64,000 nucleotides of DNA. Source: Rhizomucor pusillus. Taxonomy: Eukaryota > Mucoromycota > Mucoromycetes > Mucorales > Lichtheimiaceae. Shown in pieces: positions 29,598 through 62,049 of this stretch (the first letter of the stretch is position 1; every line of letters starts with the position of its first letter). The position numbers and the translations under genes are program-made. Under the pieces are notes generated by a model. It did not search any database, was not told where the DNA came from, and worked only from the letters and a program-made list of their open reading frames with translations. The stretch is taken from contig FWWN02000695.1 in NCBI GenBank assembly GCA_900175165.2, positions 62,001 through 126,000 of the forward strand. Direction: 5' to 3'.

Positions 29598-32500
29598 ATG
29601 TCGCAGCAATTTCCACTTAGTATGTCTTAGAAAGGAGGCCTAGCCATATCACAATTGGTATCCTAAGTTACTGCTATCTAGGCTGGTTCTTCATCAAGAA
29701 CAACAACGGTTACGTGCTAACCGCTTCGCAAAACAAGGAGGGCGCACATATTGTGATCTCCACTCTTCGAACTAGCGAGCCTGATGCCCAACTATGGCGT
29801 CACGATGGCGAAGGTCGCCTTTACAACAAGGCCACCGATCTTGTTATGGACGTTGCAAAGGGTAAGCCATTCGTTTTATCAAACTATACATTTCTTCTTT
29901 TTCGTTGCGCGCGCGCGTCTTGCTGCTGTGATGATAACGAGCAAGCTGTCATCGATTGCCTTGGGCGGAGAATCGAGTACACCAAACTCGGAGCACCCGG
30001 ATGTCCTATTTTTCAAGTTGGAGTACAAGAAGCCGAATCTGGAAAGATTCGAGCAACCAATCTGTCACAGCAGCAAAGTCGCCGCCAAAATAATGGAAAC
30101 GCTTGGAATCTGACACATTCGAATCATACTGCTAGGCAACATCAAGGCGGGCTCAGAATTAGTGCTGCAGCAGCAATCAGCTGCCAAAGACGCCGGCCAA
30201 AAGTTTGCTGTTTCATCGGACGGACACATTTGTCTTGCTGGAAAATCGTCTCTTGTGCTGGGCATCAAGGAGTCGTTCTTTTCTCGAAGCGAGGGCTTGC
30301 ATGTGCATCTCCAATCTGCTGATAAGCGCAGCAAGCAACAGCACTGGAACTTCGTGCTTCCCGTCACCAAATCTTCATCCAGCGCTTCAACTCAGCCGAA
30401 GCGCAGTCCTAGCACTAGCACTATGGATAGCATATCCGGAACACCGGTCAGCAAGACTGTCGCTCAAGTCAAAGCAGACGGTAGTACACAGTCTAGACCT
30501 CGTTTGTCAAGTCTCTGTTTACTAACACAACATTACCCCGCTTTTACGTAGACGCGCGCTCTGTCCGTTCCGCATCTACTGCCTCCAGCTTGGATCAAGA
30601 GGAGGCTCAAAAGGTTCCTGTAGGAACTTTCCCTGACACTCCATTCTTCCTAAAGTCCCAGCACAGTGGCTATTTCATTGGTTCAGAGGCATCCGCTTTG
30701 AACCAATCTGGTGCTCGTTTGACTGTTGACGCTTTGCGCAAGACCGGATATGATAGCCAACTGTGGACGTTTGATAGCGCGACTGGTCGCATTATCAACA
30801 AGCACTCTGGCCTTGCTCTCACTGCCGATACCCTCAAGGATGATGCCTATGTCTGTCAAGCTGCAGTGTCCGAAAAAGACTTGAAGATCCAAAGCTGGAC
30901 TCTTACTCCCAACAATGAGCTCTGTCTCCGCCAAGATCCCAGCTGGTTCCTTGGTCTCAAGGAAAGCTGGTTCAGTCTTAACCGCGAAGGCGCTCACGTT
31001 CATATCCAAAAGAAGGCTAAATCTGGACACGATCATCAAAAGTTCACCGTCGTACTTCCCGTTTTCAAGAAGCGCACCGTGGAAAGCACTATTACCGAGG
31101 TGCAGCAGGGCGTCTTCCCTGATGGCTGGTTCTTTGTCAAGAACCAGTCTACTGGCTCCGTCCTTACTGTCTCCGAAGACACTGTCATTGCTACCAAGCT
31201 AAACACTGCAAGCTACTCCAGTCAACTTTGGAGATACAAGGATGGCTTCCTCCTTAATAAAGCCTCCGGAAAGGTCTTGGATGTCCGTGGAGGTAAGTTT
31301 AGTAGCCAATAATGCAACAGAAGAAAACAAAGGATATTTATCATTCATTGTTTTTAGGCTGCATCGCACATGGCGCACCCATCTGCCACTACGAGCAAAA
31401 GAAGAAGGACAACAAGAATCAACTTTGGGCATTGACTGCCGAAGGATTCATCTACGTCCAATCAGAGGCAAACTTGGTCCTGGCCGTTTTTGAAGGCAAG
31501 GAGCACGTAAGCTTGCAGAACAAGCTGTCTGGTGATCACAAGGAGCAGCGATGGAATTTTGTTCTTCCCGTTTTCAAGAAGAAGACTAGAGAAGGTAAGC
31601 TCGACAGTCTGCTTGGAAGTGCAAACAATTCTGTAACCTCCTTTCTCGCAACAGTTGCTACCAGTTCCTCTACCGAAGCTAAAGTCTCATACCGATATGC
31701 CCAGTACCCAGCAAGCTGGTTCTTTATCCGATCATTCGTCGCTGGCTCTACCAAGGAGAATCCTTTTGTCTTGACAGCCTCGACCGAATCAAAGACTGTC
31801 ACTCTCAAGCATCTTGATCGCCAAGAATGGCGCACTCAGCTTTGGACATACTCCTCTGGTGTTCTCATCAACTATGCCAGTGGCCTCGCTTTGAGCTTGA
31901 ATGGTACGTAAAAAATGTTTTTCTTTAGGGACAAAAAATTCTGAAACGGCATCGATTGTAGCCATTTCCCAAGGTGCAAACGCGGCTCTCACTCAAATTG
32001 ATACTTCTTCCCGATCCTTGCATTGGAGCCTCACTATTGACGGTTACCTCGTCCACGGTTTCGAGCCCTCTTTGGTTCTTGCCCCTCAAGCTGCTGAAGA
32101 TAAGAGCTCCTTCTCGGTCATCGCGGTCGACCACCGCGTTTCCAAGGAAGAGCGACGCTGGGGTCTGCTTCTTCCAGAAATTTCTGTCCAGGATGGATTG
32201 CAGGTCCTGGTCCGCTGGTCTGTCGCCCTCCTCCAAGAATGGAGAAAGGCTACAAAGGAAGTTTCAGCAGCCAAATCGGTCGTGCGCTTCGCTGCTTGGC
32301 CCAAGGATCACTTTTTCATTTCTACCTCTGATGGCTACGCCCTCGTTCCCGAGAAAGCTCAAGCTGAATCTTCGGTAACCCTCAAGAAGCTTGACGTCAA
32401 TGCTGATATCGAGCAGTTCAAATGGACGTTCGATCAAGGTTACCTAGTCCACGTTGCTACTGGACTTGTCCTCTACTGGACGGGTGAGTTGATAAATTCT

Positions 32501-35500
32501 TCTGCTCTCGATAGATTTCAATGAAATTTCTAATTAACCCTTGATTTTATCAGCAAATGATCAATTACAGCTTCACACCAAGCTTTATGGCAGGAACAAT
32601 GCCGTTGACGAGCGCCAGTTGTGGAGCCTAAAGACCAACGGTGTCATTGTGTCCGAAACCTACGCTGACCACGGTATCTGCCTCACTCGCCACGCCGACT
32701 CTTGGCAAGTCCATATTTGCGATGCAAAGAAGAGCGGCAAGCACTACACTTGGAGCCTTCAATATGGTCTTTACCGCACCGTTGAATCCCGCAGAGTAAT
32801 CTATGGCTTCGAAAAGATCATTCTTATGATCACCACCGTCCGCAAATGTAAGTGGCATATATTTATCTCCATTTTAAGAGTTATGCTTTAACACAGATGT
32901 TTTTCCATCACTAGCTACTCGCAGCGAGCGCAAAGTGGTTACTACCAAGTATGCACTGTTCCCGAAGGACTGGTTCTTTATCCGATCGAAATCCGACAAC
33001 TCTCTCGTTATCACTGCCTCCAAGGGCAAGGAAGGTGCTTTCTTGAAGCTGGCCAAGTTGGACTTCCAGAACTACAAATGCCAGCTGTGGCGTTGCGATG
33101 AAGACAACCAAATCGTCAATATGGAAACTGGCTATGTCTTTGACATTGCAGGTGGAAAGATTGAAGCCAACTGCAATGTGATCCAGTGGCATGAAAAGAT
33201 GCTTTGGCGTAGCAAGAAGAACCAGCAGTGGGGTCTCTCCGTAGAAGGCCACATCCATCCCCAGGCACGCCCCAGTCTTGTGCTCGCTCCCAAGAACGGT
33301 GTTACCAAGGAAAACGAGACTCTGCAGCTTAAGCATCGCGGTGCTCTCTCTGACGACTCTCAACAATGGGGCTTCGCTGTCCCTGTATTTGGCAAGACTG
33401 GTTCTACTTCCTCGATCTTGGAAAGCGTTGGCGACGCTCGCTTGCAAGTCTCTAGCCGCGAAAAGTACGAACGTGTCATCAAGAAGACCATTGTCCGCCG
33501 CTGGGGCGTTTTCCCATCTGGATCAATGTTTATTCGCCTTGGTCATGGCTCTGAACGCCTTGCTTTGACTGTTGAGCAAAAGCCTACCGGTGAAAATGAG
33601 TATGCTGTTGTAGCCCGTCCCATGAACTTTAAGGAGTACAAGTGGCAACTCTGGAGTTACGACGAAGGTCATCTCATCAACGTACAAACTGGCCTTGCTC
33701 TTGACGCTTACGCCGCTGCTGGTGTCTTGGTTGAACATGGATTGAAGTTGCAGCTCTTTGTCCGCGAGCGTTCTGAATCTGATACTCAATACTGGGCCCT
33801 TGGTGTCGATGGCGAGATCCACTTGAAGTCCAACGAACGCTTGGTCGTCAGCGTTTCCAGCCCCGAGCGCGCCTCCGTCGCTGGTGCCCAAGTCGGTTTG
33901 CGCGAACTGCAGGTCCGCAAGCATGTCGAAAACGGACGTCAAGAGCTCAGCCTGGTTTCTGCTGCTTGGATGCGCTGGACATTCTCCAAGCCTGTCTACG
34001 GAAAGCGCGCTATTGCTTCTACCGAGTCATCCACCTCTGCTGAATCTACCGAAGAAGTCGAAGGCTGTGAAGAAGAGAAATTGGATGTCAAGCAAGACGA
34101 AGAATCAGCCAATGAGGACTCTACCGACGAGGAAGAGGAGGATGACGACGATGACGATGATGAAATCGAAGAAGTCGCTGCCTCTACTCCTATCATTGCC
34201 GATGACAAGAGCGAAACATCCTCTACTACTAGCAGCAAGCGCAGATCTCGAACTTACAAGCCCAAATTGACTCGAAAGGATTCTTTCACAGACACTGATG
34301 ACTATGTACCTACTGGTTTCGAAAAAGTCGTACGCTACAAAACTCACAGTGGCCCTCTCCCCACATCTGGCTACTTTATCATCAAGAGCGATCTGCATGG
34401 CTACGTCTTGGACATTGACGGTGAAGCCAAGGAAGGCGCCTATGCAGTCTTGACTCGCCTCAGATCTACGGATTTCGCAAGCCAACTCTGGTCCTGCCGC
34501 AACGGTTTCTTGATCAACCTGAAGGGTCAAAAGTTGGCTCTTGATGCTTCTGAGGGACGTCTCTCTTCTGGAGAACGCGCCCACCTCGCTGAATGGAAGG
34601 TTACCGGCGATGCTGCCGATCAGCAATGGGAACACAGCGCTGAAGGTCTCATTTACCTGCGTGCCAAGCGTTCATACGTTCTTACCATCAAGGAATTGAA
34701 GCGATCTGACAAACACGATAAGATTGATGTCTTTGTTCAGGAAGAAAAGACCCACGGAAACCTCAAGAACGGTGCTAGACGTGAACAGCGCTGGGAAATC
34801 CTTATTCCCTCTCTCATTCCGGAACAGCCCAAGGAGACTGGTGTCAAGATTGTCGAAGCCGGAAAGAAGGCCACAGCTGCTGCTGCTGCATCGACTCTGG
34901 TCTACAAGTGGTTCAAGGAACTGCACCACCACGAAGTTACCAAACACAAGTGTCTTCCGGAATCCAAGTGGTTCCTGATCCGTTACGGTGGACAGAACAC
35001 TTACCTTGCTGCTGGTACCGAAAAGGATCAAGTTGGTATTTACGAACTTGACGACTCTGTTGACTACAAGCGCTTCCTCTGGATCTATGTCAATGGCTAT
35101 TTGGTCAACTACAAGTACATGCTTCGCCTTGTTCTTACTCGCTGTAAGTATTTTCATTCAGATGAGCAGTTTCTCTTTAAAGTGGTAAACTTTACTAAAT
35201 CATTGCTATGCACTAGCTCGCAAATGGATCCTTTCTGAAGGCGATGATGAAGAAGAACAGACTATCCAAATTTCCGAGCGCGGCATTATCATTGTCCGTT
35301 GGAAGACGGTCATCTACTACCTTCGTATTGTCCGTCGTTCCGGTGTAGCTGAACTTGATATTGCTGAAGATGAACAATCTGCCGTCAGCGAACAAGAAAA
35401 CGATGCTGTTCAATTCCACGTTCCTGCTTTTGCAAGCAAGGAACAAGAAGAAGAAGCCAACAGTGTCAAGACCACTGTCGCCAGCTGGGTTGTCAAGAAG

Positions 35501-38500
35501 ACCACCACTGTCACCAAGCATATTATCGTGCGCAAGGCTTACTTCCCTGATGCAGCTCACTTTTTCATCAAGGTTGCCACTGAAGGCAAAGATGATCTCG
35601 TCCTAGCCATTACCGATGAATCCGTTGAATCTGGTATCACGTTGCAAAAGCTCTCATACGCTGGATTCAAACGCCAGCTGTGGTCTTTCCAGGATGGCTA
35701 CCTGATCAACTATGCTAGCAAGCTCGCTGTCAGCTTCAAGGGTAAGTTTAATAATTCCTTGCACTGTATATTTTAATGCTTACTCTGTCTATAGGCGACG
35801 TTGCAGAGTCCTTGAAGATCGTCCAGCTCGAAAAGGAAAAGATCACTCAAAAATGGATCCTTACCGTTGATGGTGTCATTTGTATCCATGGCCACGATCA
35901 TGCATTTGCTCTTGGTCTTGACAGCGAAGAAATCGTCGAAGGCGCCTCTGTTGTGTTGACCCGCACTGAACTTGTTCGTCGCACTCTCCGCTGGAAGTTC
36001 GCTGTGCCCATTTTCGGCAAGAAGAAGGTTGCCACCCAGCAACAAACTGGCTCAGTCGAACAAGAGCAGCATGAAGAAGAGGAAGAAGTGATCGAATCCG
36101 CTTTGGAAGTTGAAACCAAGGAACACGAAACTATCTCAGATGTTGCCAAGGGTGCCATTGCTGCCGGTGTCGCTGCCGGTGCCGCTGCTGCAGTCATCGC
36201 TGCTACAAAGAACAAGGATGAAAAGGAGCAACACAGCAGCAGCAGCGAACACAAGTCTCAAAAGACTATCGTCCACACTGAAAGCAAGGCACTTGTCACT
36301 ATCACTACTGAATACTGGACCATTATCCGTGCTTGGCGTATCGTCTTTATCAGACTTGTCCGTCAATGCAAGACCAAGGCAGAGCTCGTTGCTGCTATTG
36401 AAGAGTCTCGTCGCATTCTTCACCAGCGTTTGGATGCCCACTACCAACGCCACGCCTCCATCAAGCAGTACTCGACTGATGTAACCTCTGTGGTCGATAC
36501 TGCCAAGGATCTTATCCGTGCTCGCTTATTTGAAGTCATCTTGTCCAAGGTTGCTTCCTACGAAGCCAGTCACCGCATCACCTTTGAAGAGCTTGACCTT
36601 CAAGCCTCGCTCGATGCCGCTTACACTCAAGTTGAGCAGCACTTTAACCAAGTCATTGACACAGAAAAGACCGCAATTACTGAGCACGAGCAATCCAGCA
36701 AGACCGAGTCTGGTGCAGTTCTCAGCACTGAAAGGGTTGTTGAAGGCAGCCTCGTGGCCATTGCTAGCATCAAGACCATTGTTCGCGTTTGGTACAAGAC
36801 TCTATTCTACAAGATCTCGATTGCACGCAAGTCCGGTGCCTCTGAAGACGAGATCCAAAAGCTTGTCGAACAAGAACGTAAGCAATTGTCATCCCAGATT
36901 GCTACCACAACTTCCTCGGTGACTGTAACCGGTTCTGTAAAGGAATCCGTGTCCTCTGCAGTCCAGCGCATCGAAGCTATTGTTGACAAGCAAGTCGAGA
37001 CCATCCACACTGAAAAGATCTATGAGTCTGAAGCCAAGTGGGAAGAAATTATGAAGTTGGCTGAGAAACACGTCGATGTTGAAGTCGATACCTGCCAGGA
37101 AGCTATCTTTAGCCAGGAGATCAGCAAGTCTGAGGAACAGGAGAAGTCCAAAGCTACTACTACTGAATCCTCGCAATTTGTCTTGCAAACCGTTTCGACC
37201 AAGTTTGGTGAACTCAAGACTTCTATCTCTGGATGGTACGAACAGGTCTCTCGCGACTTGACTTGGTGCTACGAAGGCGAATCCGATGTCGTCACCGCCA
37301 AGAAGGATTCTTTGGCTATCATTGAAGCCGCACAGGTCGATTTCGTTGGCCTTATTGAGCAAACCAAGTTTGTCATTCGCACGCAATACACAAACTTGTC
37401 CTGGATCGAACGCCGTCGTATCGAGCACACTTTGGAGACTTTGAAGGGATCGATTCTGGCTTATGCTTGGCAGTTCCGCGACCAAGTTTCTTCCTCCGAA
37501 TCTACCAAGGAAAGCATCATTGAGCGCATCAAGTTCTCCTTTGGATCTAAAGCGCAAACCGAATTCGCAGAACAAGTCGATATTTCTGTTGCCAAATTGA
37601 CCGGCACTGTTACCAAGACTTCTTCATCCACTGTCTCCGCTGGAGTGATCCAAGACAAGAAGCATGAGGATAGCCATCATCACCACACAACTGGAAAGGT
37701 TGGCGATTCTCAAGTTGTTACCAAGGACAAGGGAGCCAGCGGCGTCGCCGTCGTCGCCGTCGTCGTTGAAGAGACCAAGACCATTGTCCGCTCCTGGTTC
37801 GCACGTCTCACTCAGAGAATTACCGAGCGCGTCAAGCAAGGTGGAGAAAACACCAACCAAGACATTGAAGTCATTATCTCCGAGGCCAAGGCTGAATTGG
37901 AGGCTACTGTCAAGGACAAGAAGCACCACTGCGCTTCCAACCTGACGGATACCAAGTCCACCGCTGTCGTTGAAGAAACCTTCACTTCTGTCATCGCTAC
38001 TGTCACTCAACAAACTGATCGTATCAAGGAGGTTGCCATTTCATCCGGCACTGCGAACGTCGAGGAAATCAGCGAGAAGCTCCAGACTGTATCCAACTCT
38101 ACTCTGGAACAGGTCTCCACTGCCGTTGACAAGTGCAAGTCGCACCTGGATGTCAAGCAAACTGCTGAGAAGGTCGGCTCAGTCGTCATTGTTGGAAAAT
38201 CCAAAGCAGTTTCTGTTGTTGAAGGTAAATTCACTAAAGTCATTGCCAATTTTACATGATTCTAACGTCATTCTATTAGAAACCACCAAGGCTGTCACTG
38301 GATGGCTGTCTGGCTTCATCGGCCGTATTTCTGGATCTTTGGTCACTGGTACTTCAACTGATGTAGAGACTGTCAGCGCCTCATCTGAGCAAGAGCTTCT
38401 TGAGCTTTGCGAGCAAGCCAAGACCAAGATCATCACCACTGAAGGCGTCAGCGCTGCCGAATCCGAAAGGTACCTTGCCATTATCGAGTCTATCCGCGTC

Positions 38501-41500
38501 ACCGCAGTTACTCGCGTCACTCAAGTCAAGCAGGTTGCGACCGAAGGCGGCGCGAGCGCTGTTGAGCAGCTCAAGGTGATTGAGCAAGAGTCCCAGCATG
38601 ATATCACCAAGCATTACCACGAGGCTACTGCTGTTCAAGTCACCGAGCAGCATGTCACTGCAGCTGTCGAGGAGACCAAGGTTTCTGAGGCTGTTGGTGA
38701 AAAGAAGGACGATACTGCCACCAAGTCTCACGACCATCACCACACCGGTCTCAAGGTCGCTGCTGGTGCCGCCGCAGTCGCAGCCGGTGCTGCAGCTATT
38801 TCCATCATTGCTGGCCATGACTCTGATAAGACTGACGACTCCAAGGCAACCGTGACTCACGTTGAAACTGGAGTTGCCAAGATACACGAGGACAAGGAAA
38901 AGCAGCAGCAACAGCACACTCAAGTCACTGCTGGCAAGTCCACAGAACAGAAGCAGGCTGCAGCTGTCATTGACACCGGCAAATCCTCGTCTGTCGTTGT
39001 CACTGAGGAAGGAAAGGTCACTGCTGTTGTTGATACTGGCAAATCCGAGGTTTCTGCTGAAACTGCTGAAAAGAAGGAGACCGACTCGAGCAAGACCACT
39101 GTCAAGCATGAGCAACAAGCTGCTATTGCTGTTGAGGTCGGCCAAGTCGCTACTGAGGTCATCTCTGAAAAGGAGCAAGCTGCAATTTCCGTCGGAAAGA
39201 CTACTACCAGCAAGCCTGCTCACGATATTACCAAGCAACCCGAGCATCACAAGGAGCAAGCTGAAGCAGCCGTTGCTGTCGTAGCTGGCAAGGTAGTAGA
39301 ATCCGACAAAGGCAAGACCGTTGACACCGCCAGTGTCGTTGAAAAGAAGGAGCAAGGCGCTGTCGTCGTCGAGGTTACCGAAAGGGAACAAGCTGCTGAG
39401 ACCACCAAGAAGGAGACCGAACACGGCGCTGCTGTGGCTATTGTGACTGGCAAGGTTACCGAAGTCGTTTCTGAAAAGGAGGAGAAGCAAACCGCTGTCT
39501 CCACCGACAAGGAACATGCCGTTCAAAGCACTACCAAGGAAACAGAGCACAAGCAACAGCAAGGTGCAGCCGAATCCGGCAAGGTTGTCTCCAAGGAACG
39601 AGAGGAGAAGAAGACTGCTGCTGGTGTTGTGGCAGTGGAAACCGGCAAGGTTGTCGAAAGGGAGAAGCACACCGCTACCTCCACTGAGAAGGAACACGCC
39701 GCTCAAGATATTGCCAAGGAAACAGAACACAGGCAACAGCAAGCCGAATCCGGCAAAATTCTCTCCAAGAAACAAGTGGAGAAGAAGGCTGCTGCTGGCA
39801 TTGTGGCAGTGGAAACCGGCAAGGTTGTCGAAAAGGAGCAGGAAGAAAAGAAGACGACTGCCGGTGTTGTGGAAACTGGCAAGACCCAGCAAGAGGTATC
39901 TGAGCATGAGAACACCCACGCAACTATTGACAAGCACAAGACTTCCGAGAAACATGATATCAAGAAAGGACACGAGCACGAAAAGAAGGAGTCTACCCAC
40001 ACAGCTCTCGAGGTCGCAGCTGGTGCTGCCATCATTGCTGGCGGCGCTGCTGCCGCAGCAGCCATCATTCACCACCATCATGAAAAGGAGAATGAAGAAA
40101 AGGCTGCCGAAAAGCAAGAGAAGCAACATCAAGACACTCAAGTCGGAAAAACCGAAACTGGCATCGTTGCTCAGCATAAGCAAGAATCTGCCAAGGTCGA
40201 GGAGGACAAGACTACTGTTGACAAGAAGACTACCGAGACCGTCACAGAATCTGGCAAGGCTTCTACCGTCGTTAAAGAAGAACAAGTCGTGTCTGCCACT
40301 GTGATCGCTTCTCAGAGCATTGTCGCTCAAAAGGTCAGCACCAACGTCCAAGATCTGCGTGTCACTATCCGTGAATGGTATGCTGCTCTTGTCGAACGCG
40401 TATCTGCCCAGTCTGGAAAGGCTGGTGTCAGCAAGGCCGAGATCGAAGCTATTATTCAAGGCGAAACTGAGGCTATTCACAAGCACATCGAAGTCTCTTC
40501 TGGCAAGATCCGTGAGAGCTTCACTTCTGAAACCGAAACTAAGGAACTCGAAGCTACTCTAACCTGGATCAAGAGCACAGTTTCCAAGAGCACTACTCAA
40601 GTCCAAGAAATCGCTGTACAAGTCGTCTCCGGCTCTACAAACAGCAACGGTGCTGCTCAGTTGCAAGCGATCGCTGCAAGCCATCAGCAAGAAATTGAAG
40701 AGGCATTTGTTCAATGCGAGCACAAGATCAAGAAGGTTACGGCCGAAAAGAAGACCTCTGCTCACATCGAAGAAAAGCACAAGGAGTCCGGTGCTGCTGT
40801 GCATGAAAAGGTAAAATACTATGAACATTTTGTCTTCATTCCCATTGATGCTAAAACTCTTCCTTAGGTTCAACATGGTAAGATCTCTGTGCCCGCAACT
40901 GTAAAGAAACCCGCCGGCCAAGTTGTCAGTATCAGTGCAGTCGAATATGTCAAAGTCACTGTCCGCAACTGGTATAGCAAGCTGGTTGAAGATGTTTCCG
41001 CTCGCGTTGCCAAGGGTGGTGAAACTGTCTCTGCCGACGTTGAAGTCATCATCGAAGAAGCCAACAAGCATATCACTGCAGAACTCGGCGGTGTATGCGA
41101 GAAGGCTGACCGCTCTGGATCCAAGCAGGTTGCTACACAGCTGGTGTCTACAACTGAGTGGGCTAAGGGCATTGTCCTGCAGACCTCCAACCAGATCAAG
41201 GCAATCAGCGTCCAAGCCATTGCTTCTGGTGAAGCCAACGCTGTCAGTATCAAGGAGCGTATGAACGGATACATCCAATCCACTCAGCAGCAAATCGACA
41301 CTGCCTATGGATCATGCGATTCTAGCCTCGTCATCCAAGTGGAAGAAGAGAAGACTGTTGCTCATGGATCCATCGAATTGGTTGAGCGCGACTCTCAAGC
41401 TATCAAGGCCGAGAAGGAACAGAAACAACTCAAGTCTCGTACTTCCACCGGTGCAGTTGTCTCGATCGGCGCTGTCGAGCACGTCCAAGTCACCATCCGC

Positions 41501-44500
41501 TCGTGGTTCCAAGGCTTAATCCGCGAAGTCTCTGCTCGCGCTGCCAAGGGTGGCCAGAACGCCTCTGAAGAAATCCAGGCTATCGTCATCAAGGCTAATG
41601 AATCCATTGCTGCGCAGTTGTCTCAAGTCACTGCTATCATCGAAGCTTCCGCGGTCGACAAGACAGCATCACAAAAAATTACAGAGACCATTCAGTGGGC
41701 AAAGGACCTTGCCGTTCAAAGTTCCACTCAAGTTCAAGCGATCGGTGTGCACGTCGCTGCCTCTGGTTCTACCAACGTTTCGGCTGCATATGACCAGATG
41801 AAGGCTGTCGTCGAATCCACGCAGACTCAAATCACCACTGCTGTCGAACGCTGCGATACCTCTTTGACAATCCAAGTTGAAGAGACGCAAGTGATCGTAA
41901 GTATATAATTTTTTTTTGTCATGCAAAATCTAACTCATTATATTGTAGAAGGTGGACGAGACTGCTGATAAGCCCAAGAAGCACGAACACACCGTTGCCC
42001 ACCACCACGGTGCCTCCACCACCGGCGCAGCAGTAGCCGTAGGCGCAGCAGTTGTCACAGTCGGTGTCGTTGAGCATGTGAAGACTACTATCCGTGCTTG
42101 GTACCGCAAGTTGATGGAAGACGTTGCAGAAAGAGCTGCTAAGGGCGGCGACAGCGCAGCTGCTGACATTGAAGTCATTGTCGAAAAGGCCAACAAGGCT
42201 ATCGAAGCTGATATTAAGCATGTCTGCGAGAGGGCTGGTCACAGCGACAAGAACGAGCAATCTGTCAAGGAACTTGTCTCTACTACAGAGTGGGCCAAGG
42301 GTCTGGTCTTGCAGGGTTCTGCTCACATCAAGCAAGTCGGTATCCAAGTCGCAGCTGCAGGTGGTGCCACTGCCATTACTGTCAAGGAACGCGTATCTGG
42401 TTACATTGAACAGACCGAGGCACAGATCAACACTGCTTTTGAAAAGTGCGATACGTCCGTTGCCATTCAAGTCGAAGGTGAAAAGTACGAATACATCACC
42501 GCCGTTGCTGCTGGAAGGAAGGTCACGCACAAGGCAACTGAAGTTGAAGAAAAGAAACACGTTGCTCACAAGGACCAGAAGAAGACTGATGTTGAAGAGC
42601 ACAAGAAGTCTGAAGAGCATAAGAAGACCAACGTTGATGATAAGAATGCTGAAGAGCATCACAAGGCTAAGTGCGAAGACAAGAAAGCCGAGGAGCACAA
42701 GGCCAAGGTCGATGAGAAGAAGGTCGAGGAACACAAGAAGACCAACGTTGATGATAAGAAGGCTGAAGAGCATCACAAGGCTAAGTGCGAAGACAAGACA
42801 GCCGAGGAGCACAAGAAGACCAAGTGTGAAAACAAGAAAGCCGAGGAGCACAAGGCCAAGGTCGATGAGAAGAAGGCCGAGGAACACAAGAAGACCAANN
42901 NNNNNNNNNNNNNNNNNNNNNNNNNNNNNNNNNNNNNNNNNNNNNNNNNNNNNNNNNNNNNNNNNNNNNNNNNNNNNNNNNNNNNNNNNNNNNNNNNNNN
43001 NNNNNNNNNNNNNNNNNNNNNNNNNNNNNNNNNNNNNNNNNNNNNNNNNNNNNNNNNNNNNNNNNNNNNNNNNNNNNNNNNNNNNNNNNNNNNNNNNNNN
43101 NNNNNNNNNNNNNNNNNNNNNNNNNNNNNNNNNNNNNNNNNNNNNNNNNNNNNNNNNNNNNNNNNNNNNNNNNNNNNNNNNNNNNNNNNNNNNNNNNNNN
43201 NNNNNNNNNNNNNNNNNNNNNNNNNNNNNNNNNNNNNNNNNNNNNNNNNNNNNNNNNNNNNNNNNNNNNNNNNNNNNNNNNNNNNNNNNNNNNNNNACAA
43301 GAAAGCCGAGGAGCACAAGGCCAAGGTCGATGAGAAGAAGGCCGAGGAACACAAGAAGACCAAGTGTGAAGTCAAGAAGGTCGAGGAGCACAAGGCCAAG
43401 GTCGATGAGAAGAAGGCCGAGGAACACAAGAAGACCAACGTTGATGATAAGAATGCTGAAGAGCATCACAAGGCTAAGTGCGAAGACAAGAAAGCCGAGG
43501 AGCACAAGGCCAAGGTCGATGAGAAGAAGGCCGAGGAACACAAGAAGACCAAGTGTGAAGACAAGAAGGTCGAAGAGCACAAATCCAAGTGCGAAGATAA
43601 GAAGGCCGCTGAACACAAAGCTAAGGTCGAAGAAGAAAAGCAGGTGGTTGAGCACAAGAAATCGAAGTCTGAAGAAGAGAAGAAGGAAGTTGCAAAGAAG
43701 GTCGCTGGTGCACTCGTGACAGTAACAGTTGTCGAACACGTCCGCTGGACCATCCGTGCCTGGTTCGAGAAATTGATGCAAGATGTTGCTGTCCGCGCAT
43801 CTAAGGGTGGTGCAAATGCTACACAAGACATCGAAGCTATTGTTGCCGAGGCCAACAAGACCATTTCTCTTCAATTTGCAGACATCACCTCCTCTTCCAA
43901 GACATCTGGAAACAAGGCTGCTGCTCAAAAGGTCTCTGAGACTCTCCAGTGGGCCAAGGGTCTGATCGTCCAGGGCTCTGCTCAAGTCAAGGCTATCGGT
44001 ATCCAAGCAAGCGCAGCTCACTACGATGCTGTTACAGCTCACAAGCACATGGAAGCATTGGTCGAGGCTACTCAGAAGCAGATTAGCACTGCTCTTGAAA
44101 CCTGCGATGAGTCGCTCGCTATCCAGGTTTCAGAGGTAAGCTTCTTTAGAAAATGGATTGGTATATAGGAATTGCATCACTTACTTTATTGTATAGGTCA
44201 AGCATCGCGATACCATTGAAAATAAGAAGAAGCAGCAACCAGTTTCGAAGCATCATACCTCGACCGCAGTCGTTGCTGGCGCTACTGCTGCAGCTGGCGC
44301 TATCGTCGCCGGTACTGCTGTTGTCTCCATCAGCGTCGTCGAACACGTCAAGGTTACTATCCGTTCCTGGTACCAGAAGCTGGTGGACGATGTTGCTACC
44401 TGCGCTTCTCGTGGTGGTTCGCAGCAAGACATTGAAATCATTGTTACCAAGGCCAAGGAGCAGATCACTGCTGAACTCTCTGGCGTCTGCGAACAAGTTG

Positions 44501-47500
44501 ATCGCACTGAGACTGGCACTTCCGGTTCTCAGATCAAGTCCACCACTCAATGGATCAAGGACATGGCTCTTCAAAGTTCAGAACAGGTCAAGGCCATTGG
44601 TGTACAAGTCATTGCATCTGGTGGTGCATCAGTCACAAGTGTCAAGGAACAGATATCTGGACTTGTCACTGCTACTGAGACGCAGATCACAACCGCACTG
44701 GGCCAATGCGACTCCAAGGTTACCGTCTCTGTAGACAAGGAGAAGAAAACTGCTGTGGTTACCGGTCACCATTCTGAAAAGAAGACTGCTTCCATCAAGG
44801 ATAAGGAGCATCATCAAGAAAAGAAGGTCGAACACCATGATGATAAGAAGGGCCGTGAGTGCCACAAGGAGAAGAAGCCTGAGCATCACGAAGAAAAGAA
44901 GGACCGTGAATGCCACAAGGAGAAGAAGGTCGAGCATCACGAAGAGAAGGAGACCGAGCACCACGAAGAGAAGAAGGCTGATTCTCACAAGGATAAGAAA
45001 TCCGAGGAACACCACGATGTTACCAAGCACACTGACGCAATTGTCGGCGGTGTTGCTGCCGGCGTTGCTGTCATTAGCACCGTCGATTACATCAAGGTCA
45101 CTGTACGCTCTTGGTATGAGAAGCTCATGAAAGAGGTTTCCGAACGTGCCGCCAAGGGTGGCGAGAATGCTTCGCAAGACATCGAAGTCATTGTTGCAAA
45201 GGCCAACGAGGAAATCAATGCCCACTTTGAAAAGATTGGCACCAAGGTTACTCAAACTGAGAAGACCACTGCTTCGACCAAGTTGTCCGAGACATTGACC
45301 TGGGCTAAGAGCATTACCACTCAAAGCGCCTCTCAGATCCAAGTTATCGGTATTCAAGCTGCCGCTTCGGGTATCGGTATCGCTGGAGCACGTCAACAGA
45401 TCAAGGCCGTTGTCGAATCTACTCAAGCACAGGTCAACGCTGCCGTCGAAACTTGTGACAAGTCCGTAACAATCGAGATCGAAGCCGAAGAAAAGGTAAC
45501 ATTCTCGAATGGCTTACTTAACAAAAAAGTGTTATAGACTGACTTGTTTTACCAGGAACGAATTGAGATTGTCGAAAAGAAACATGCTCACGAAAAGGTC
45601 GTTTCAGCCCCATCGACCGAAATTGTCACTGGCGCAGTTACCGTCAGCGTCATTGAGCACGTCAAGACTACTGTGCGCTATTGGTTCCGCAGATTGATGG
45701 ATGAAGTCGCTGTGCGCGCTGCTAAGGGCGGCGCAGATGCTTCTGCCGACATTGAAGTCATCATCGCCAAGGCTAACGAGCAGATTACCGCGGAGCTTAA
45801 CGGTGTATGCGACAAGGCTGGTCAGGATACTGAGAGCGAAAGCGTTAAGCAGCTCAAGTCTACGACCGAGTGGGCCAGAGGTTTGATCCTTCAAGGTTCA
45901 GCTCAAATCAAGCAAGTTGGCCTGCAAGTTGCAGCAACCAGCGGTGCAACCGTCGCCACTGTTCATGAGCGTATCTCCTCCAGCATTGGATCCATTGAGG
46001 ACCAAATCGACACTGAACTTGACAAGTGCGATAACAAGGTTACAATCCAAGTCGATAGCGCCAAGGCTGCCGCTGCCGCTGCTGTCGTGGCTGTCAAGGA
46101 GCACCGTCAAGCTGCTGTTGCTGAAAAGCACGAAGACGTTATCGGTTCTGTTGCCAAGGCTCACATTGAAGAAGGTGTCGTTGTCAGCGTAGGTGTTGTC
46201 GACCACGTCAAGTCTACCGTCAGCTCCTGGTTCCAACGACTTGTACGCGACATTACTGAATGCTCTGCCAAGGGCGGCAAGCAGGAAGAAATTGAAGCTA
46301 TTGTTGCCAAGGCCAATGCTACCATCACTGCACAGTTCTCCGAGATTACTGTCAAGACTGAACACTGCCAGGACAAGACCACTGCAAAGAAACTCACTGA
46401 GACTTTGGAGTGGGCAAAGGGTGTTGCCTCTCAGGGCGCCACTCAAATCCAAGCCATTGGTATCCAAGCATCAGCTGCTGGCGCATCTGCAGCAGCTGCC
46501 TATGAGCAACAAATCAAATCTCTCGTCGAGGTTACTGAACAGCAAATTAACACTGCTGTCGAACACACTGAGGCTGACCTAACCATTGAAGTTGTCAAGG
46601 ATAAGAAGGAGGTAATATACTTTCTATAATTCACCGTGTAGCGGCAAAAATGATACTCATCTCGAAATTATATAGGCCGAGCTTATTGAAAAGCAAAAGA
46701 AGGAGAGCAAGAAGGTTGTGTCCAAGCACACCGATGATAAGAAGCAGCCATCCTCTTCTGTCTTGCCCATTGCAGCTGGTGCGGTTGTCGTTGGCGGAGT
46801 AGTAGCTGTCAGCGCTGCTGAACATGTCAAGGCTACAGTCAGCTCTTGGTTGAAGCGCCTCACAAGCGAGGTTTCCGCACGCGCAGCCCAAGGCGGTGAA
46901 AATGCATCCAAGGAAATTGAAGAGGTCGTTGCCAAAGCGAACGAATCTATTGAAGCCGAGCTTACTACAGTCTGCGACAAGATCGCAAAGGTTTCTGACG
47001 AAAAGGCCAAGCAACTGGTTTCCACTGCAGAGTGGGCTAAGAAACTTGTCCTGGAAAGCTCAGCTCAGATCAAGCAAGTTGGTATCCAAGTCGCTGTTTC
47101 TGGTGGAGCAACTGCTGAAAAGATCACGGAACAATTGTCTTCTGTCGTCAAGTCCACCGAAACTCAAGTCAGCACTGCATTGGCTACCTGTGACGATTCG
47201 GTTACTGTCGAGGTCGACAAGTCTCAGGTTGAGAAACTCGCAGCCTCTGGTGTTGCTTTCACCGTCACTGCTGCTTCGCACATCAAGGCTATTGTCAGTG
47301 CTTGGTACAAGAAGCTGACAAGCGACGTTGCTGCACGCGCTGAAAAGGGCGGCGAAAATGCTTCCCAGGAGATTCAAGCTATTGTTGCTCAAGCAAAGGA
47401 ATCTATTGCAGCTCAATTGGCTCAGACTACGACCAACGTCACTGAAGTCTCCAAGGTCACCGAATCAGAGACTCAAGAATTCGTCAAGGTCACTGAATGG

Positions 47501-50500
47501 ACTAAGGGTCTCGTCTTGGAAAGCACCGAAAAGATCGAGACTATGGGTATCAAAGCTGCCAAGGAGGGCAATGTTGCTATCTTCCACGAAGAGGTCACTT
47601 CTCAAGTCGATGAAATCGAACAGAAGGTCAGCACTGCTCTCGACAAGTGCGATTCCAAGCTCGTTGTCAAGGGTACCGCTGCCGTTGCAGCTAGCACAGT
47701 TGCCGTTGGAATTGTCGGCGTATCTGTCGTAGACCACGTCAAGAAGGTCGTCCGGGCATGGTACTACCGTCTGATCGAAGATGTTTCTTCATGCGCTGCT
47801 CGCAAGGGCCAAAATGCCTCTGTTGAGATTGAGGAAATTGTAGCCAAGGCCAAGGAATCATTGTCCACCCAGATCATCGCTATCTCTGAAAAGACCAAGA
47901 CTGCAAAGGACAAAGAAACAGCTACGCAATTGATCGACACTCTTGAATGGGCAAAGGATGTCGCTCTTCAAGGCTCTACCCAGGTTCAAGCTGTCGGTAT
48001 CCAAGCAGTATCATCTGGAGCTTCCTCGGGTGGATTGGAAGAAATGAAGAACATTGTCGAATCAATTGACAAGCAAGTCGACGTTGCTTTCGCCAAATGC
48101 GACTCTTCTGTTCAAGTTGAAGTGCTTTCTTCTGAGACTGCTGTCATTGAAGAGGTAAGATTTTCATTCAACTGAACTAATGAACTGTGTTTGACAAAAA
48201 TATTTGTATTAGACTTTGACCACTGTCATTACCAAGAAGTCTATTGGCAAATCTACGGAAATTACCGAAATCGATGATTCTTTGGAAATTGTAAGTTCAT
48301 TACTATTTGAATATCTTACTGTATATCGTTCCTAACTGGTCACAAAAGATTGGCGAAGAATCAGCTGAAATTGAAAAGGTCGAAGAAAAGAAGGACATCG
48401 TTGAAACTATCAAGAAAGAAGAGTCTAAGAAGACTGCCGAATTGGAGACAACAGTCAAGAAGGTAAGCATCGCTAACTTTTGAGACCTTTGAAGAGCTCA
48501 AACTCAATTGTGGCATCATAGGATGTCAAAAAGATCGAAAAGGAACGGCCCAAGCCTGTTACCGAGTCCAAGGAGAAGCATGAAGAATCCAAAGAGCACA
48601 AGGGCATCTCAACCGAAAAGATCATTGAAGGTGGTCTGGCCTTTGGTGCCGTTGGTGCTATTGTAGCCGGTGCTGTCGCTGCCCACGAGGCTCACGAAGC
48701 TCATGAAGCCAAGAAATCCGAAAAGGATGATAAGCACGCTGCTGAGAAGATTACCACTGGTAAGTAAACTAACTGAGAAATTCTGACATTTGGTCATCTA
48801 ACTCGGTTGTTATAGGTGAAGCCATCACTGTTGGTGCTAGCAAGGAAACCCAGAAGGTGGAGAAGTCTCAGACCTCCGTTGCTGAAAAGGGTAAACCATT
48901 CGGAAATTGCTCTCCCCAGGGCCTAGTGACTAAATCGGCAATTCCAGAAACATCAACCCACGTAGCTAAGGATGAGGCAGCTAAAGCTGAAGTTGAAAAG
49001 CAGACCAAGGTTGAAGAGTCCAAGAAGACTGAAGAGCATTCCAAGACTCAAACATCCATTGGTGACAATGGTAAGAATGCATACAAGCTTTGAAAACTGG
49101 TAACAATTCTAAAACAATACGTACTAGAACAATCTATCAAAGTAACCAAGGATGAGGCAAAGAAAGTCGATGTCGAAAAGAAGGACCACAGCGCCGCAAC
49201 TGACGCCCAAAAGGTACGAGCTAGCCAGCCTTTCTTCTGACCGAAAACTAACAAAATCATTAGGTCTCAAAGACCACCAAGGAGGCAGTTGCCGAGACCG
49301 AAAGCAAGGAGTCCGCCAAGGTTGATACCTCAAAGACCACTGGCCACCATGAAAAGAAGGAAGGTATCACCAAGGAACAGATTATCGAAGGCAGTTTGGC
49401 TATCGGCGCTGTCGGTGCCGTCGTAGCTGGTGCCGTCGCCTCCCACAAGGAATCTGAGAAGAAATCGACCGGTAAGCATTGCTTGAATTCATATGCAGAA
49501 AGAAAACAACTTGATACTTAACCTTCTGCTATAGAAGAGCAAAAGGCAACTGGAAGTGCCGAAAAGACTACTGTTGCTCATGAGGCATCCAAGTCAGGTA
49601 AGCAAGTGCATGACAGAGGATGATATCCGATCCAATTAGTTTCTCACATCTTTCGCAACTTTTCTATTAGAAGCTCAAGTTGGCATTATTGTCGTGGATG
49701 AAAAGAAGCGCACCCAAATTGTGGAAACTACTCAACAAGCTGCAGTTGATATCCGCAATTGGTTCAACGTCTGGATCGAAAAGATCACTTCTATCTTGGA
49801 AGTCTCTGACTCGTCTGATGCCGAACATGAAATCAAGGAGTCTATTGCCGAAGCTGAGGTTGAGCTTGCTCAGAAGATCACCGAACTCAAGAAGGTTTCT
49901 GAATTCCCTGAGGCTCACCTCGATGTCTTCTACGACAACCTTCACGCAACCGTTTCCGAGCAGTTGACGGCAGTGCGCGCCAGCGTCGTTGAAACCCAAG
50001 TGCAAGACAAGTCTCAAAAGATTGCAGCGCTTTCTGTCATTGCATCCACTTTGGCAGACAAGGTTACCGCTCAAGTTACGACTGTAAAGGAAAAGACTAC
50101 CACCGCAGTTTCCAAGAGCGGCAAGGCTGTGCAGGATGTCGCTCAATCCGTCGAAGACAAGACTCACCGCCGCATCCAAGTCGTAAGCACTGAAAACGTC
50201 GTTGCTACCAAGACCAAGGTTGATGGCTGGTACTCTCGTCTGATTGAACGCATCGTCAGCTGCTACAAGCAAGGAGGAGAGGATGTATCCCAGAAGGTTT
50301 CGGCTATCATTGCTGAATCTGAAGAAGAACTCAAGGTTATTGTCTCGACGGCAAAGGAAACCACTTCTGCATCAACTACCAGCACCGTTGTTGCAGAGCG
50401 CGACTACGCTGCTACTCTCGACTGGATATACGCTACTGTTACTGCTCAGGTTACGACTATCAAGACCATCACCACCCAAAGCATTGGCCGCCAGGTCGAT

Positions 50501-52015
50501 ATCGAAACGCAGCTTAACAATGTCACTATGGTATCCAAGAAGCAAATTGAGCAGGCACTTCAAGCTCATACTGTCACTGTGGAAGCTGAGTCTCGGACTC
50601 AAGAACAAGAGTCCAAAGACATCAATGTTGTTGCAGTCGTCCATGAGACAGCTGAAGAGGCCCGCGAGCGTACTCAAAAGGAGATGGCACTTATTGTTCA
50701 AGAAACCCAAGTTAAGCTCTCTGGATGGCTTGAGATTCTTATCAAGAACATCAAGTCATTGCTTCGCCGCGAGAACTGTGATGTCGAAAAGGAGCTTGCA
50801 ATCCTGATTTCTGCAGCTGACAAAGACTCCAAGCTCATCTTTGAAAACGCCAAGACCAGACTTGTTTCTGTCGGTGACTCTTTGGCTGCTTCTCACGTTG
50901 ATGTTGAAGTTGCAACCATCCTTGCAAAGACTCAAACGCAGACTCTCAACTCTCTAGATACCATCAAAGGTGCGGTCTGGAGCAAGGTCACTACTTTGCA
51001 ACACATTGTCTCTACATCTCGTGACGAGGATATCTCTGTCATCGAAGAGCGCATCAACAACCGAGCAACTCTTATCAAGCAGAGTGTAGACCATTCTTTG
51101 GAATACATCTCGGGAGCAGTCATCACCGCAGCTTATGAAGGCAAGACCGTCACTTTGGTCGAGAGCACTGAGATTCCTGAATCCTTCAAGACCGTCCGTG
51201 CCTTTGCATTCGACTTGGTCGGCGCTGTTGCTGACTACCGCGCATCGGTTGCACGTGTCTGGCAAGAGATTATCAAGACCAAGACCAACACTCACCGCTA
51301 CGAGATTGATTTAGTCGCCTTTGTCGATCAATGGTATCTCAAGTTCTTGGAACGCAAGAAGAATTGGACCGAAACGGATCAAACCCTTCTCCGCGTCATA
51401 TTGCTTGAACTTCTCAAGGAACGCTCCTTGGAATGCGGATTTAAAGATTCTGAAATTGATCTTCTCTGTGGTGTCTGGCGCCGTCTTTCCCTCTTCCACG
51501 ATGCTTCGGCTGGTATCCGCCGTATCAAGAGCCAACAGCACGGTGGCATGATTGCAGTATCCTTCTCACCATTCTTCTCTACATCTACATTGGTTGATCT
51601 TGCTCGCACTGGATGTCTCTGCTTGCATGCCCAGTTCGGTGCTGATATTATCACTTCTATTGGCAACAACTCTGCTGACAGCATCTCTCGACTTTTGGGA
51701 TTGCAACAAGCCGAAAACCTCGCAGTCGTCTCTTCTAACGCTCTAGTCCTCCAGCTTGCAAAGGCACATGGCGCTCGCACTGTTCACATCCATCGATCTG
51801 AGGAGGCTCACGTTGGTAGCGGCGAAACTACTCAGTTCGACGTTGAAATGGACGGCCTCGATATGCTTGCAGAAAGCTTTGAAGTCATGCTTGAACAAGA
51901 AGAAATCAAGAAAGTTTCATCAAGCGCTGCTGCTCCCTCTCGCTCTTGGTTCCAGCGAATTGTGGACACCGCTTCTGGTGCTACTGAAACTGTCCAAAAG
52001 GCTGTCATCGGTTAG
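29598..52015 (+). CDS. Gellin-like giant protein (about 6,894 aa, 26 exons)
   Basis: Gellins are cytoplasmic Mucoromycota proteins with ten beta-trefoil (Gll) domains. Under flow they unfold and assemble, gelling leaking protoplasm at wounds. Exons, all in frame: 29598-29619, 29682-29861, 30136-30480, 30552-31292, 31358-31594, 31655-31903, 31962-32483, 32554-32847, 32915-35143, 35217-35741, 35795-38224, 38280-40810, 40868-41896, 41949-44135, 44197-45495, 45556-46611, 46676-48154, 48213-48290, 48349-48462, 48522-48759, 48816-48890, 48948-49070, 49128-49213, 49264-49471, 49535-49597, 49671-52015. Exon 16 could start at 45538, and the 57-base intron 48891-48947 may be retained. Residues 8-1860 hold exactly ten trefoils, about 1950-6600 helical repeats and linkers, and 6620-6854 a degenerate HAD-like domain. 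Codon bias is strong (AAG, C-ending), suggesting abundant protein. The length includes about 132 residues of gap. The Gellin call rests on domain count and type. Confidence 0.87.
29682..36045 (+). other. Ten tandem Gll-type beta-trefoil domains
   Basis: Domains lie at about 29682-30365 (with intron), 30620-31070, 31110-31580, 31690-32185, 32280-32820, 32940-33405, 33490-34010, 34330-34815, 34930-35500 and 35520-36040. Most follow the pattern [SGK]WFFI[KR] near the start, QLWxY near one third, a lobe ending in LDVxGG, QxWxLTxDGxI in the middle and RWxFVLPVFxK at the end. The QxW triplet recalls ricin-B trefoils. Domains 5 and 9 are the most diverged and lack the closing PVF. An acidic linker separates domains 7 and 8. 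Confidence 0.87.
34030..34290 (+). other. Acidic low-complexity linker between trefoils 7 and 8
   Basis: About 85 residues rich in Glu, Asp and Ser, including EEEEDDDDDDDEIEE, followed by a basic Ser/Arg patch. It divides the trefoil array into 7 + 3. Confidence 0.85.
38755..40090 (+). repeat. Linker with hydrophobic Gly/Ala segments and ETGKV repeats
   Basis: Two Gly/Ala-rich hydrophobic segments (about 38755-38815 and 40008-40065), each next to a histidine cluster, flank about 1.2 kb of degenerate repeats. The repeat unit centres on VxTGKVVxxE followed by Lys/Glu-rich sequence, in about ten copies. It is predicted to be mostly disordered or coiled. Confidence 0.75.
42560..43690 (+). repeat. 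KxEEHK tandem repeat linker
   Basis: Short Lys/Glu/His-rich tandem units such as KKAEEHKAKVDEKKAEEHKK, nearly identical at DNA level, between two helical repeats. The N run lies inside, so the true copy number is unknown. Unit length is about 12-13 codons. Confidence 0.9.
42899..43296. other. Assembly gap (398 N) inside tandem repeats
   Basis: Falls in the KxEEHK repeat of the Gellin-like gene. The frame is the same on both sides, so the stated length preserves the open frame. The assembly probably collapsed here because the units are nearly identical. Confidence 0.98.
51180..51900 (+). other. Degenerate haloacid dehalogenase-like domain at the Gellin C-terminus
   Basis: Residues about 6620-6854. 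AFAFDLVGAVADYRASV matches the type II haloacid dehalogenase motif I (FDVFGTVVDWRxSV): the first aspartate and the glycine are kept but the threonine is lost. IAVSFSPFFSTSTL stands where motif II (LSNGN) should be, the motif III lysine segment is missing, and VVSSNALVLQLAKAHGARTV matches the VSSNAWDxxGAKxFGFxTV block without its aspartate. The fold is probably kept and the enzyme dead. Confidence 0.75.
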
Positions 52016-52071: not shown

Positions 52072-52353
52072 ACGTATGTGTTATCATAAAAAACAAGTTA
52101 TCCTCTTACGAGTTATTTGGAGGACTATAAGCTATATCGGATGGAAAATCCTTATTTTCGTCTATAGAGTAGCATCCTTGATACGGATAGACGTGAATAC
52201 AGGCGCCTGCAATTTGGACAATTTTTGTGCCTGTTGATCAGCTCAGCGGAGCAGAAATGCAGAAAGCCTCGTGTGTGTCACATCAAGCGCAGACATTGTC
52301 CGCTCAAACACAAGCATTATCGGGAGGAGGTCACTGTGTACAGTGCGTGTGCA

Positions 52354-61566: not shown

Positions 61567-61693
61567 TAGAGATCTAGAGAGACAAAAAAAAATTGTGTGT
61601 GCACGGGCTCGCGCGCGCGGACGCTGAATCAAGGGACGAGCTGCAACAGCGAGGCAACCACGTACTCTACTCTCACACCAGCTAGAAAACATC
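61567..61693. promoter_or_regulatory. Bidirectional promoter, SET gene and YOS1
   Basis: Only 127 bases separate the two divergent starts. It contains a GC-rich alternating CG tract (about 61608-61622) and an A-tract but no TATA box. Confidence 0.5.
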
Positions 61694-62049
61694 ATGGCGC
61701 TTGGTCTTGGTCAACTATTTTATGCAATCTTGTTGTTCATCAACTCCATAGCTGTTCTGAGTGAGGAACGATTCCTTGCACGAAGTAAGGCGTTTCTTTA
61801 GTCTGATATTATGCAAATCGCTCACGCAACGTTCTAGTCGGCTGGAGCGCCCAAGTCGATCCTGGGTTTGGCATTGACCAGTCTCAATCAGTAAAGTACA
61901 AGATTATCAACTTAATATCAGCCGTACGGACATTAATGAGAAGTATGTAACATGGTTCGCGATCTGCGTCTCCAACTAACTTTTTCTATCTAGTCCCATT
62001 AATTGCCATCAACATTGTGGTTATCATGTATGAGTTACTGCTAGGATAG
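61694..62049 (+). CDS. YOS1: YOS1/IER3IP1 homologue (83 aa, 3 exons)
   Basis: A small membrane protein of the Yip1-Yif1 complex needed for ER-to-Golgi vesicle transport. Exons 61694-61784, 61838-61942 and 61994-62049 join in frame to 83 residues, the usual length. The N-terminal helix (LFYAILLFINSIAVL) is followed by the family signature SEERFLARIGW. Then come a loop with GFG, an INLISAVRTLMRIPLIAIN segment, and a second hydrophobic helix that ends the protein. Both introns are phase 1. It diverges from the SET-domain gene with almost no gap. Confidence 0.95.

What the first reader, a model, noticed from the sequence alone, without database searches (positions are those of the whole stretch)
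29598..52015. Gellin-like gene with an extra 5,000-residue C-terminal half
The N-terminal half has exactly ten tandem beta-trefoil domains, the published hallmark of Gellins, which stop wound bleeding in aseptate Mucorales hyphae by gelling the protoplasm. Here the trefoils are only about 27% of the protein. Some 4,650 residues of tandem helical repeats with charged linkers and a pseudo-enzyme domain follow in one continuous gene. If real as one polypeptide (about 750 kDa), it would be among the largest fungal proteins and could act as a long tether or spring carrying gel-forming heads. The trefoil count and reading frame are seen; the function is inferred.
Basis: partly seen in the sequence, partly recalled or inferred. 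Interest (0 to 1): 0.92.

Follow-up and report, generated by a model that had tools for sequence, protein, structure and literature searches.

The report
Giant fungal wound-gelling protein gene
This looks like a full-length gene for a roughly 750-kilodalton Gellin, the protein family with which Mucorales fungi gel their leaking contents after a wound, and its long second half appears to be a regular part of the family rather than an addition peculiar to this gene.

Summary
A spliced model (25 exons, 29598-52015, +) gives 6,914 aa, 134 of them unreadable: exactly ten beta-trefoils, 17-19 helical repeats and a decayed HAD domain at the end. It is a Gellin orthologue: trefoil 1 matches the solved Mucor domain 6LCI at 3.8e-48 against 9.5e-6 for the best lectin, and the ten trefoils match one-to-one in 9 of 9 Mucorales homologues tested.

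The "extra" C-terminal half is not peculiar to this gene. A 7,751-aa Zychaea protein has the same layout, all 12 ten-trefoil homologues run on into helical repeats, and a Mucor fragment has the same end. But 11 of those 12 database models stop by 3,180 aa, so a complete C half elsewhere is shown only in Zychaea. A gene boundary at 36-38 kb is unlikely: one open exon crosses it.

The repeats are predicted four-helix bundles, and two HAD catalytic residues are lost in 3 of 3 species compared. Inferred and untested: the C half is a multivalent, perhaps force-yielding rod that loads the gelling trefoils.

The parts
29598..52015 (+). Gellin gene, 25 exons, 6,914 aa predicted (134 X)
   Evidence: homologue of the same layout P0029
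29598..36042 (+). Ten tandem beta-trefoil (Gll-type) domains, aa 5 to about 1884; starts near 29610 (split by intron 1), 30629, 31115, 31705, 32297, 32959, 33511, 34357, 34954, 35543
   Evidence: HMM count 10; Pfam PF00652/PF14200; 6LCI match; collinear in 9 of 9 Mucorales homologues given
35795..38224 (+). Exon 10: carries the second half of trefoil 10 and helical repeats 1-3 in one uninterrupted frame
36754..38695 (+). Helical repeats R1-R4
   Evidence: R2 weak (i-E 0.012)
38696..40339 (+). Low-complexity V/T/K/E/H linker with two Gly/Ala-rich hydrophobic segments (aa 2771-2789, 3190-3208)
40340..48215 (+). Helical repeats R5-R16; exons 12-15 hold two repeats each and exon 16 three, with phase-0 introns at their edges (HMM ends of five repeats run a few residues past the splice)
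   Evidence: repeat pair R14-R15 predicted as four-helix bundles, pLDDT 85.5
42507..43718 (+). K/E/H-rich tandem-repeat linker between R8 and R9, containing the run of N
48213..49670 (+). K/E-rich linker spread over small exons, with two hydrophobic segments IIEGGLAFGAVGAIVAGAV and IIEGSLAIGAVGAVVAGAV (aa 5903-5921, 6083-6101)
49721..51118 (+). Divergent helical repeats R17-R19
   Evidence: R17 weak (i-E 0.2)
51197..51805 (+). Pseudo-HAD domain related to type II haloacid dehalogenases; motif I Asp and motif II Ser kept, motif III Lys and motif IV Asp lost

Best explanation
The gene encodes a full-length Mucorales Gellin: ten Gll trefoils followed by a C-terminal half of 17-19 four-helix-bundle repeats, charged His-rich linkers, Gly/Ala-rich hydrophobic segments and a dead HAD domain. 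Shown here: one open spliced frame, orthology of the ten trefoils, the same layout in Zychaea, at least one helical repeat in every ten-trefoil homologue, the same end in a Mucor fragment, and the repeat fold prediction. Recalled from the literature: Gellins stop bleeding, and some Gll domains unfold under flow into sheets while others bind membranes. Inferred: on wounding, flow stretches the molecule; the long C half acts as a multivalent rod and load carrier that holds trefoil heads to membranes or organelles (Gly/Ala segments), to partners (pseudo-HAD) or to other Gellins, so that flow puts tension on the trefoils; bundles may yield in turn and spread the load while trefoil sheets set the gel.
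For: Ten trefoils, collinear one-to-one in 9 of 9 Mucorales homologues given. 6LCI (mdaA-1) is nearly identical to trefoil 1 of the ten-trefoil Mucor ambiguus protein P0004 and is the best PDB match of window trefoil 1 (3.8e-48, next 9.5e-6). P0029 (7,751 aa) matches at 57% over aa 1-1280 (trefoils 1-7), 42% over 1341-2405 (trefoils 8-10 and first repeats), 33% in the longest match of the repeats (4399-5823) and 39% over 6152-6904. 12 of 12 ten-trefoil proteins carry helical repeats, as do three N-truncated ones, P0015-P0017. M. saturninus P0030 aligns to aa 6150-6882 at 32%. Repeat pair predicted as two four-helix bundles, pLDDT 85.5. All ten hydrophobic segments over the threshold lie in the C half. 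In this genome the reported repeat matches all lie in this gene (12 of 12 places; only the best candidates are scored).
Against: No expression, protein or mechanical data. A run of N lies inside one exon. P0029 has no significant local match to aa 2406-3229 or 5824-6151. 11 of 12 ten-trefoil database models end at 2,361-3,180 aa, and three of them (P0005, P0009, P0012) are not marked partial, so truly shorter Gellins are possible; the C-half searches found only Zychaea and M. saturninus. The trefoil half has no 19-residue segment of mean hydropathy 1.6 or more, so the published membrane-binding motifs were not recovered by that measure. Homology of the bundles to mechanosensors is not shown: no Foldseek match at E<=1e-3, and Z for talin and catenins (about 9-10) is within the range the tool calls common for helical bundles. 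pTM of the repeat pair is 0.56. P0002 shows no hydrophobic segment at that threshold.
Confidence: 0.7

Rival explanations
1. Two adjacent genes, a short ten-trefoil Gellin and a separate giant helical-repeat gene, were fused by the reading.
For: 11 of 12 ten-trefoil models in other species stop by 3,180 aa, and the M. saturninus C-end is a separate partial record.
Against: Exon 35795-38224 is open from inside trefoil 10 through repeats 1-3. 12 of 12 ten-trefoil proteins hold a helical repeat in the same chain. P0029 is annotated as one protein.
Confidence: 0.05
2. The C half is a passive spacer or solubility tail: charged linkers and bundles keep the trefoils apart and soluble until flow unfolds them, with no binding or force role of its own.
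For: Charged, His-rich, proline-poor linkers; lower identity to Zychaea in repeats (about 33%) than in trefoils 1-7 (57%); copy number varies (17 here, 29 in Zychaea at the same threshold).
Against: Repeats show protein-level selection, and the pseudo-HAD end is kept in 3 of 3 species compared, more than a mere spacer needs.
Confidence: 0.25
3. The trefoils are ordinary ricin-type lectins and the protein is a sugar-binding surface or wall tether, not a gelling protein.
For: Pfam names the domains Ricin_B_lectin.
Against: 6LCI beats the best lectin by about 42 orders of magnitude for trefoil 1 and is the only PDB match at E<=0.01 for exon 8. The N-terminus reads MSQQFPLSWFFIKN, with no secretion signal seen by eye (no predictor run).
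Confidence: 0.04

Closest known systems
Gellins of Mucorales (Nguyen et al. 2021, recalled; PDB 6LCI mdaA-1)
   Same: Ten trefoils in the same order, trefoil 1 close to 6LCI, and helical repeats after trefoil 10 in 12 of 12 ten-trefoil homologues.
   Different: 11 of those 12 database models end at 2,361-3,180 aa, 8 of the 11 marked partial; this model is whole. Whether the published account drew the C half could not be checked (paper not held).
Zychaea mexicana BDB00DRAFT_871066 (P0029, 7,751 aa)
   Same: Same layout, from MSQxFPLSWFFIKN to the pseudo-HAD and a WFQRxVD end.
   Different: More repeats (29 vs 17 at i-E<1e-3), many nearly identical (63 of 325 pairs of the 26 longer repeats at 95% or more; window maximum 59%). 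No significant local match to aa 2406-3229 and 5824-6151.
Trefoil proteins of Mortierella, Podila, Linnemannia and Dissophora (P0018-P0028)
   Same: 8-9 trefoils per chain.
   Different: 22-24% identity, not collinear in the 2 of 11 tested, no helical repeats in 11 of 11.
Type II haloacid dehalogenases (TIGR01428)
   Same: Sequence match over the whole domain, motif I Asp and motif II Ser kept.
   Different: Motif III Lys and motif IV Asp lost in 3 of 3 proteins; 32.6 bits against a cut-off of 125.4.
Talin, alpha-catenin and vinculin rods
   Same: Tandem helical bundles; they recur in the fold search.
   Different: No significant fold or sequence match; a likeness of plan only.
Leashin, the Woronin-body tether of Pezizomycotina (named in passages of PMC10023807; size and repeats recalled)
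   Same: A giant repeat-rich protein in hyphal wound sealing (recalled).
   Different: Not compared by sequence here; different fungal lineage and role.

Membership tests
Gellin | Ten tandem beta-trefoil (Gll) domains | tested here: met
   10 by HMM. That ten is the published hallmark is recalled.
Gellin | Orthologous to the Gll domains of Mucorales | tested here: met
   One-to-one and in order in 9 of 9 Mucorales homologues given; 6LCI 3.8e-48. That 6LCI is a published Gll domain is recalled; its near-identity to trefoil 1 of a ten-trefoil Mucor protein is.
Gellin | Found in Mucoromycota | tested here: met
   Nearest homologues are Mucorales; a lipase of this genome is closest to the 6qpp/1tgl lipases, Rhizomucor by recall. 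The host itself is unnamed.
Gellin | Hydrophobic membrane-binding motifs in some Gll domains | tested here: inconclusive
   No 19-residue segment of hydropathy 1.6 or more in the trefoil half; shorter motifs not tested.
Gellin | Flow-triggered unfolding into sheets; loss causes bleeding | not testable with these tools
   Needs protein and strains.
HAD type II enzyme | Motif I Asp and motif II Ser/Thr | tested here: met
   Alignment with the genome's own HAD-II gene; motif names recalled.
HAD type II enzyme | Motif III Lys and motif IV Asp | tested here: not met
   Absent in window, P0029 and P0030, 3 of 3.
HAD type II enzyme | TIGR01428 curated cut-off | tested here: not met
   32.6 against 125.4 bits.
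Talin/alpha-catenin/vinculin rod domains | Same bundle fold or sequence family | tested here: inconclusive

The most novel reading that the evidence does not exclude
The C half is a fungal counterpart of a talin-type rod: some 17-30 four-helix bundles that open one after another under flow, expose hydrophobic Gly/Ala segments and pass load to the trefoils. Gellin would then be a two-stage, force-programmed gelator rather than a string of unfolding trefoils, and many shorter Gellins in databases would be truncated models of this machine.
Probability: 0.25. Interest if true: 0.8.

Novelty: new member of a known kind. Interest (0 to 1): 0.55.

Why it matters
It gives a whole architecture for the wound-gelling protein of Mucorales, most of which is absent from 11 of the 12 ten-trefoil database models found. 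It also says what to test: whether gelation needs the repeat rod and the dead HAD as well as the trefoils. If the rod yields under force, it is a natural design for flow-triggered materials.

Tried and rejected
Rejected: two-gene reading (open exon across the boundary; homologues). Rejected: trefoils as plain lectins. Rejected: a recent fusion private to this genome. Pfam and NCBIfam give no family above cut-off for the helical-repeat pieces given. The structure model of the C-end had pLDDT 49 and was not used. The repeat fold has no Foldseek match at E<=1e-3; talin and catenin rows are within the range common for helical bundles. For the trefoil 9-10 exon 6LCI is the best match but not significant (E 0.2). 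Two junctions of the automatic model were wrong, the acceptor of intron 2 and a false intron 5, and were corrected by hand from trefoil signatures; P0029, found later, agrees. The A/B pairing of repeats (within minus between 7.05 points; no split of the ten scored higher, rank 2 of 252 because each split is counted twice) used labels chosen after seeing the exons and left out R15. Literature: Nguyen et al. 2021 is not held. Five held papers contain the phrase 'instantaneous protoplasmic gelation'; I read passages of three (PMC12712441, PMC10023807, PMC11842775) and saw the other two in the listing only. Of 568 papers with the word gellin or gellins since 2020, 30 were listed, one of them on fungi. 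Searches for 6LCI, Gll domain and Mucor mdaA found none; searches added nothing on Gellin architecture in their listings.
Full report
Observation. The window is part of a 24.5-Mb genome that is searched without regard to introns. Reading the + frames and a spliced-gene model give 25 exons from ATG 29598 to TAG 52015, with 24 GT-AG introns, 23 of them 50-73 bases and one of 274, and one frame of 6,914 aa. 134 of these residues are unreadable because of a run of N inside a K/E/H-rich tandem-repeat exon. Two automatic junctions were wrong and were set by hand: an acceptor in the first trefoil and a false intron that removed the start of trefoil 4. The mass without unreadable residues is 742 kDa. 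The longest open frame in the C half, 973 aa, compares with a mean of 147 and a maximum of 231 in 100 single-base shuffles. Substitutions between repeats R5-R16 are fewest at codon position 2 and most at position 3 (0.346 and 0.622), so the frame looks selected as protein.

Trefoil half. A profile from the window's own trefoils finds exactly ten. Each trefoil finds its own counterpart, in the same order, in 9 of 9 Mucorales homologues given to (11 of the 30 proteins held were given; the other two, from Podila and Mortierella, were not collinear). The best PDB match of trefoil 1 is 6LCI, named mdaA-1, at 3.8e-48; the next, the plant lectin ebulin, is at 9.5e-6. 6LCI is nearly identical to the first trefoil of the ten-trefoil Mucor ambiguus protein P0004. 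The exon with trefoils 6-9 matches only 6LCI at E<=0.01, the exon with trefoils 2-3 matches it at 6.4e-23, and the trefoil 9-10 exon gives no significant match (0.2). That 6LCI and the number ten belong to the published Gellins is recalled; the paper is not held. PMC12712441 (passages read) says that Gellins cause protoplasmic gelation in Mucorales and were not detected in Glomeromycotina.

The C-terminal half and the family. Of the 28 hits of the trefoil-half search plus P0029 and P0030, 12 proteins have ten trefoils and all 12 carry at least one helical repeat after trefoil 10: Apophysomyces, Phycomyces, Mucor bainieri, Mucor ambiguus, Parasitella, Gilbertella, three Rhizopus, Choanephora, Benjaminiella and Zychaea. 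Three more that lack the N-terminus (P0015-P0017) have 3-5 trefoils and 8 repeats each. P0008, P0013 and P0014 have 9, 7 and 6 trefoils and no repeats; P0008 and P0014 end before that region and P0013 has another kind of tail. The 11 hits from Mortierella, Podila, Linnemannia and Dissophora have 8-9 trefoils and no repeats. The C-half search found one protein, Zychaea mexicana P0029, 7,751 aa. It matches at 57% over aa 1-1280, 42% over 1341-2405, about 33% in the longest match of the repeats and 39% over 6152-6904, with no significant local match to 2406-3229 or 5824-6151. The C-end search found one, Mucor saturninus P0030, 1,474 aa, partial, aligned at 32% to aa 6150-6882. So the layout is shared by Zychaea (Lichtheimiaceae) and, for its end, by Mucor. 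Against a full length throughout the family: 11 of the 12 ten-trefoil models end at 2,361-3,180 aa, three of them (P0005, P0009, P0012) not marked partial, and the two C-half searches found nothing else. These searches need shared five-residue words and limit the length, so absence is weak.

One gene. No transcript data were available.

Anatomy of the C half. The repeat is about 150 aa; 17 copies pass i-E 1e-3 and 19 pass 1. AlphaFold2 on repeats R14-R15 with ten window rows gives two bundles of four helices, mean pLDDT 85.5, pTM 0.56. Exons 12-15 each hold two repeats and exon 16 holds three, with phase-0 introns at their edges, while the ten introns up to aa 2611 are all phase 1. The two members of the pairs are more alike within class than between (48% and 43% against 38%; no other split scored higher; labels chosen after seeing the exons), which suggests growth by duplication of repeat pairs. 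In Zychaea 63 of 325 repeat pairs are at least 95% identical, so its array grew recently; the window maximum is 59%. Ten segments of 19 residues reach mean hydropathy 1.6, all in the C half and rich in Gly, Ala and Val, often next to His- or Lys-rich linkers. Of 9 homologues scanned, 8 have segments over the same threshold, some of them in the trefoil half or not of the Gly/Ala kind, and P0002 has none (for P0029 only positions were printed). In this genome the 12 places reported for the repeats all lie in this gene. Trefoil matches outside it are one place on C99 and one weak place on C183.

The C-terminal domain matches HAD structures (8wbm_A 1.5e-10) and TIGR01428 below its cut-off. Aligned with the genome's own HAD-II gene on C97, it keeps the motif I Asp and motif II Ser and lacks the motif III Lys and motif IV Asp, in window, Zychaea and M. 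saturninus alike. The structure model of this part was poor (pLDDT 49), so this rests on sequence.

Mechanism. Shown: order and kind of parts. Recalled: Gellins stop bleeding; Gll domains unfold under flow or bind membranes. Inferred: the C half is a long multivalent rod that connects trefoils to membranes, partners or each other so that flow loads them. I put about 0.5 on that role and about 0.95 on identity and architecture.

Novelty. A new member of a known family, with its full length made visible. I found no account of the C half in the open library, but the key paper could not be read, so this is not a claim that it is undescribed. Host: a Mucorales fungus near Lichtheimiaceae, probably Rhizomucor, judged from 57% identity to Zychaea over aa 1-1280 and a lipase close to the 6qpp/1tgl lipases (their species recalled).

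Noticed in passing
5173-8895 (-): P-type ATPase with five heavy-metal-associated domain stretches, copper-pump-like.
   Followed up: partly
52168-57310 (+): Open frames downstream with WD40, zinc-ribbon and RING-type domains, perhaps one gene for a SEA/GATOR2 subunit by recall; no gene model made.
   Followed up: partly
38381-40558 (-) and 41919-44129 (-): Long antisense open frames of 725 and 736 aa opposite the C half, probably by-products of codon bias in repetitive sequence; not searched.
   Followed up: no
L017:1495-1842: A separate short trefoil open frame elsewhere in the genome (C99), not a second ten-trefoil gene as far as seen.
   Followed up: partly
P0018-P0028 (database proteins): Mortierella and relatives have 8-9-trefoil proteins without helical repeats, possibly an older or parallel form of the family.
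   Followed up: partly
59689-61710 (-): SET-domain protein.
   Followed up: no
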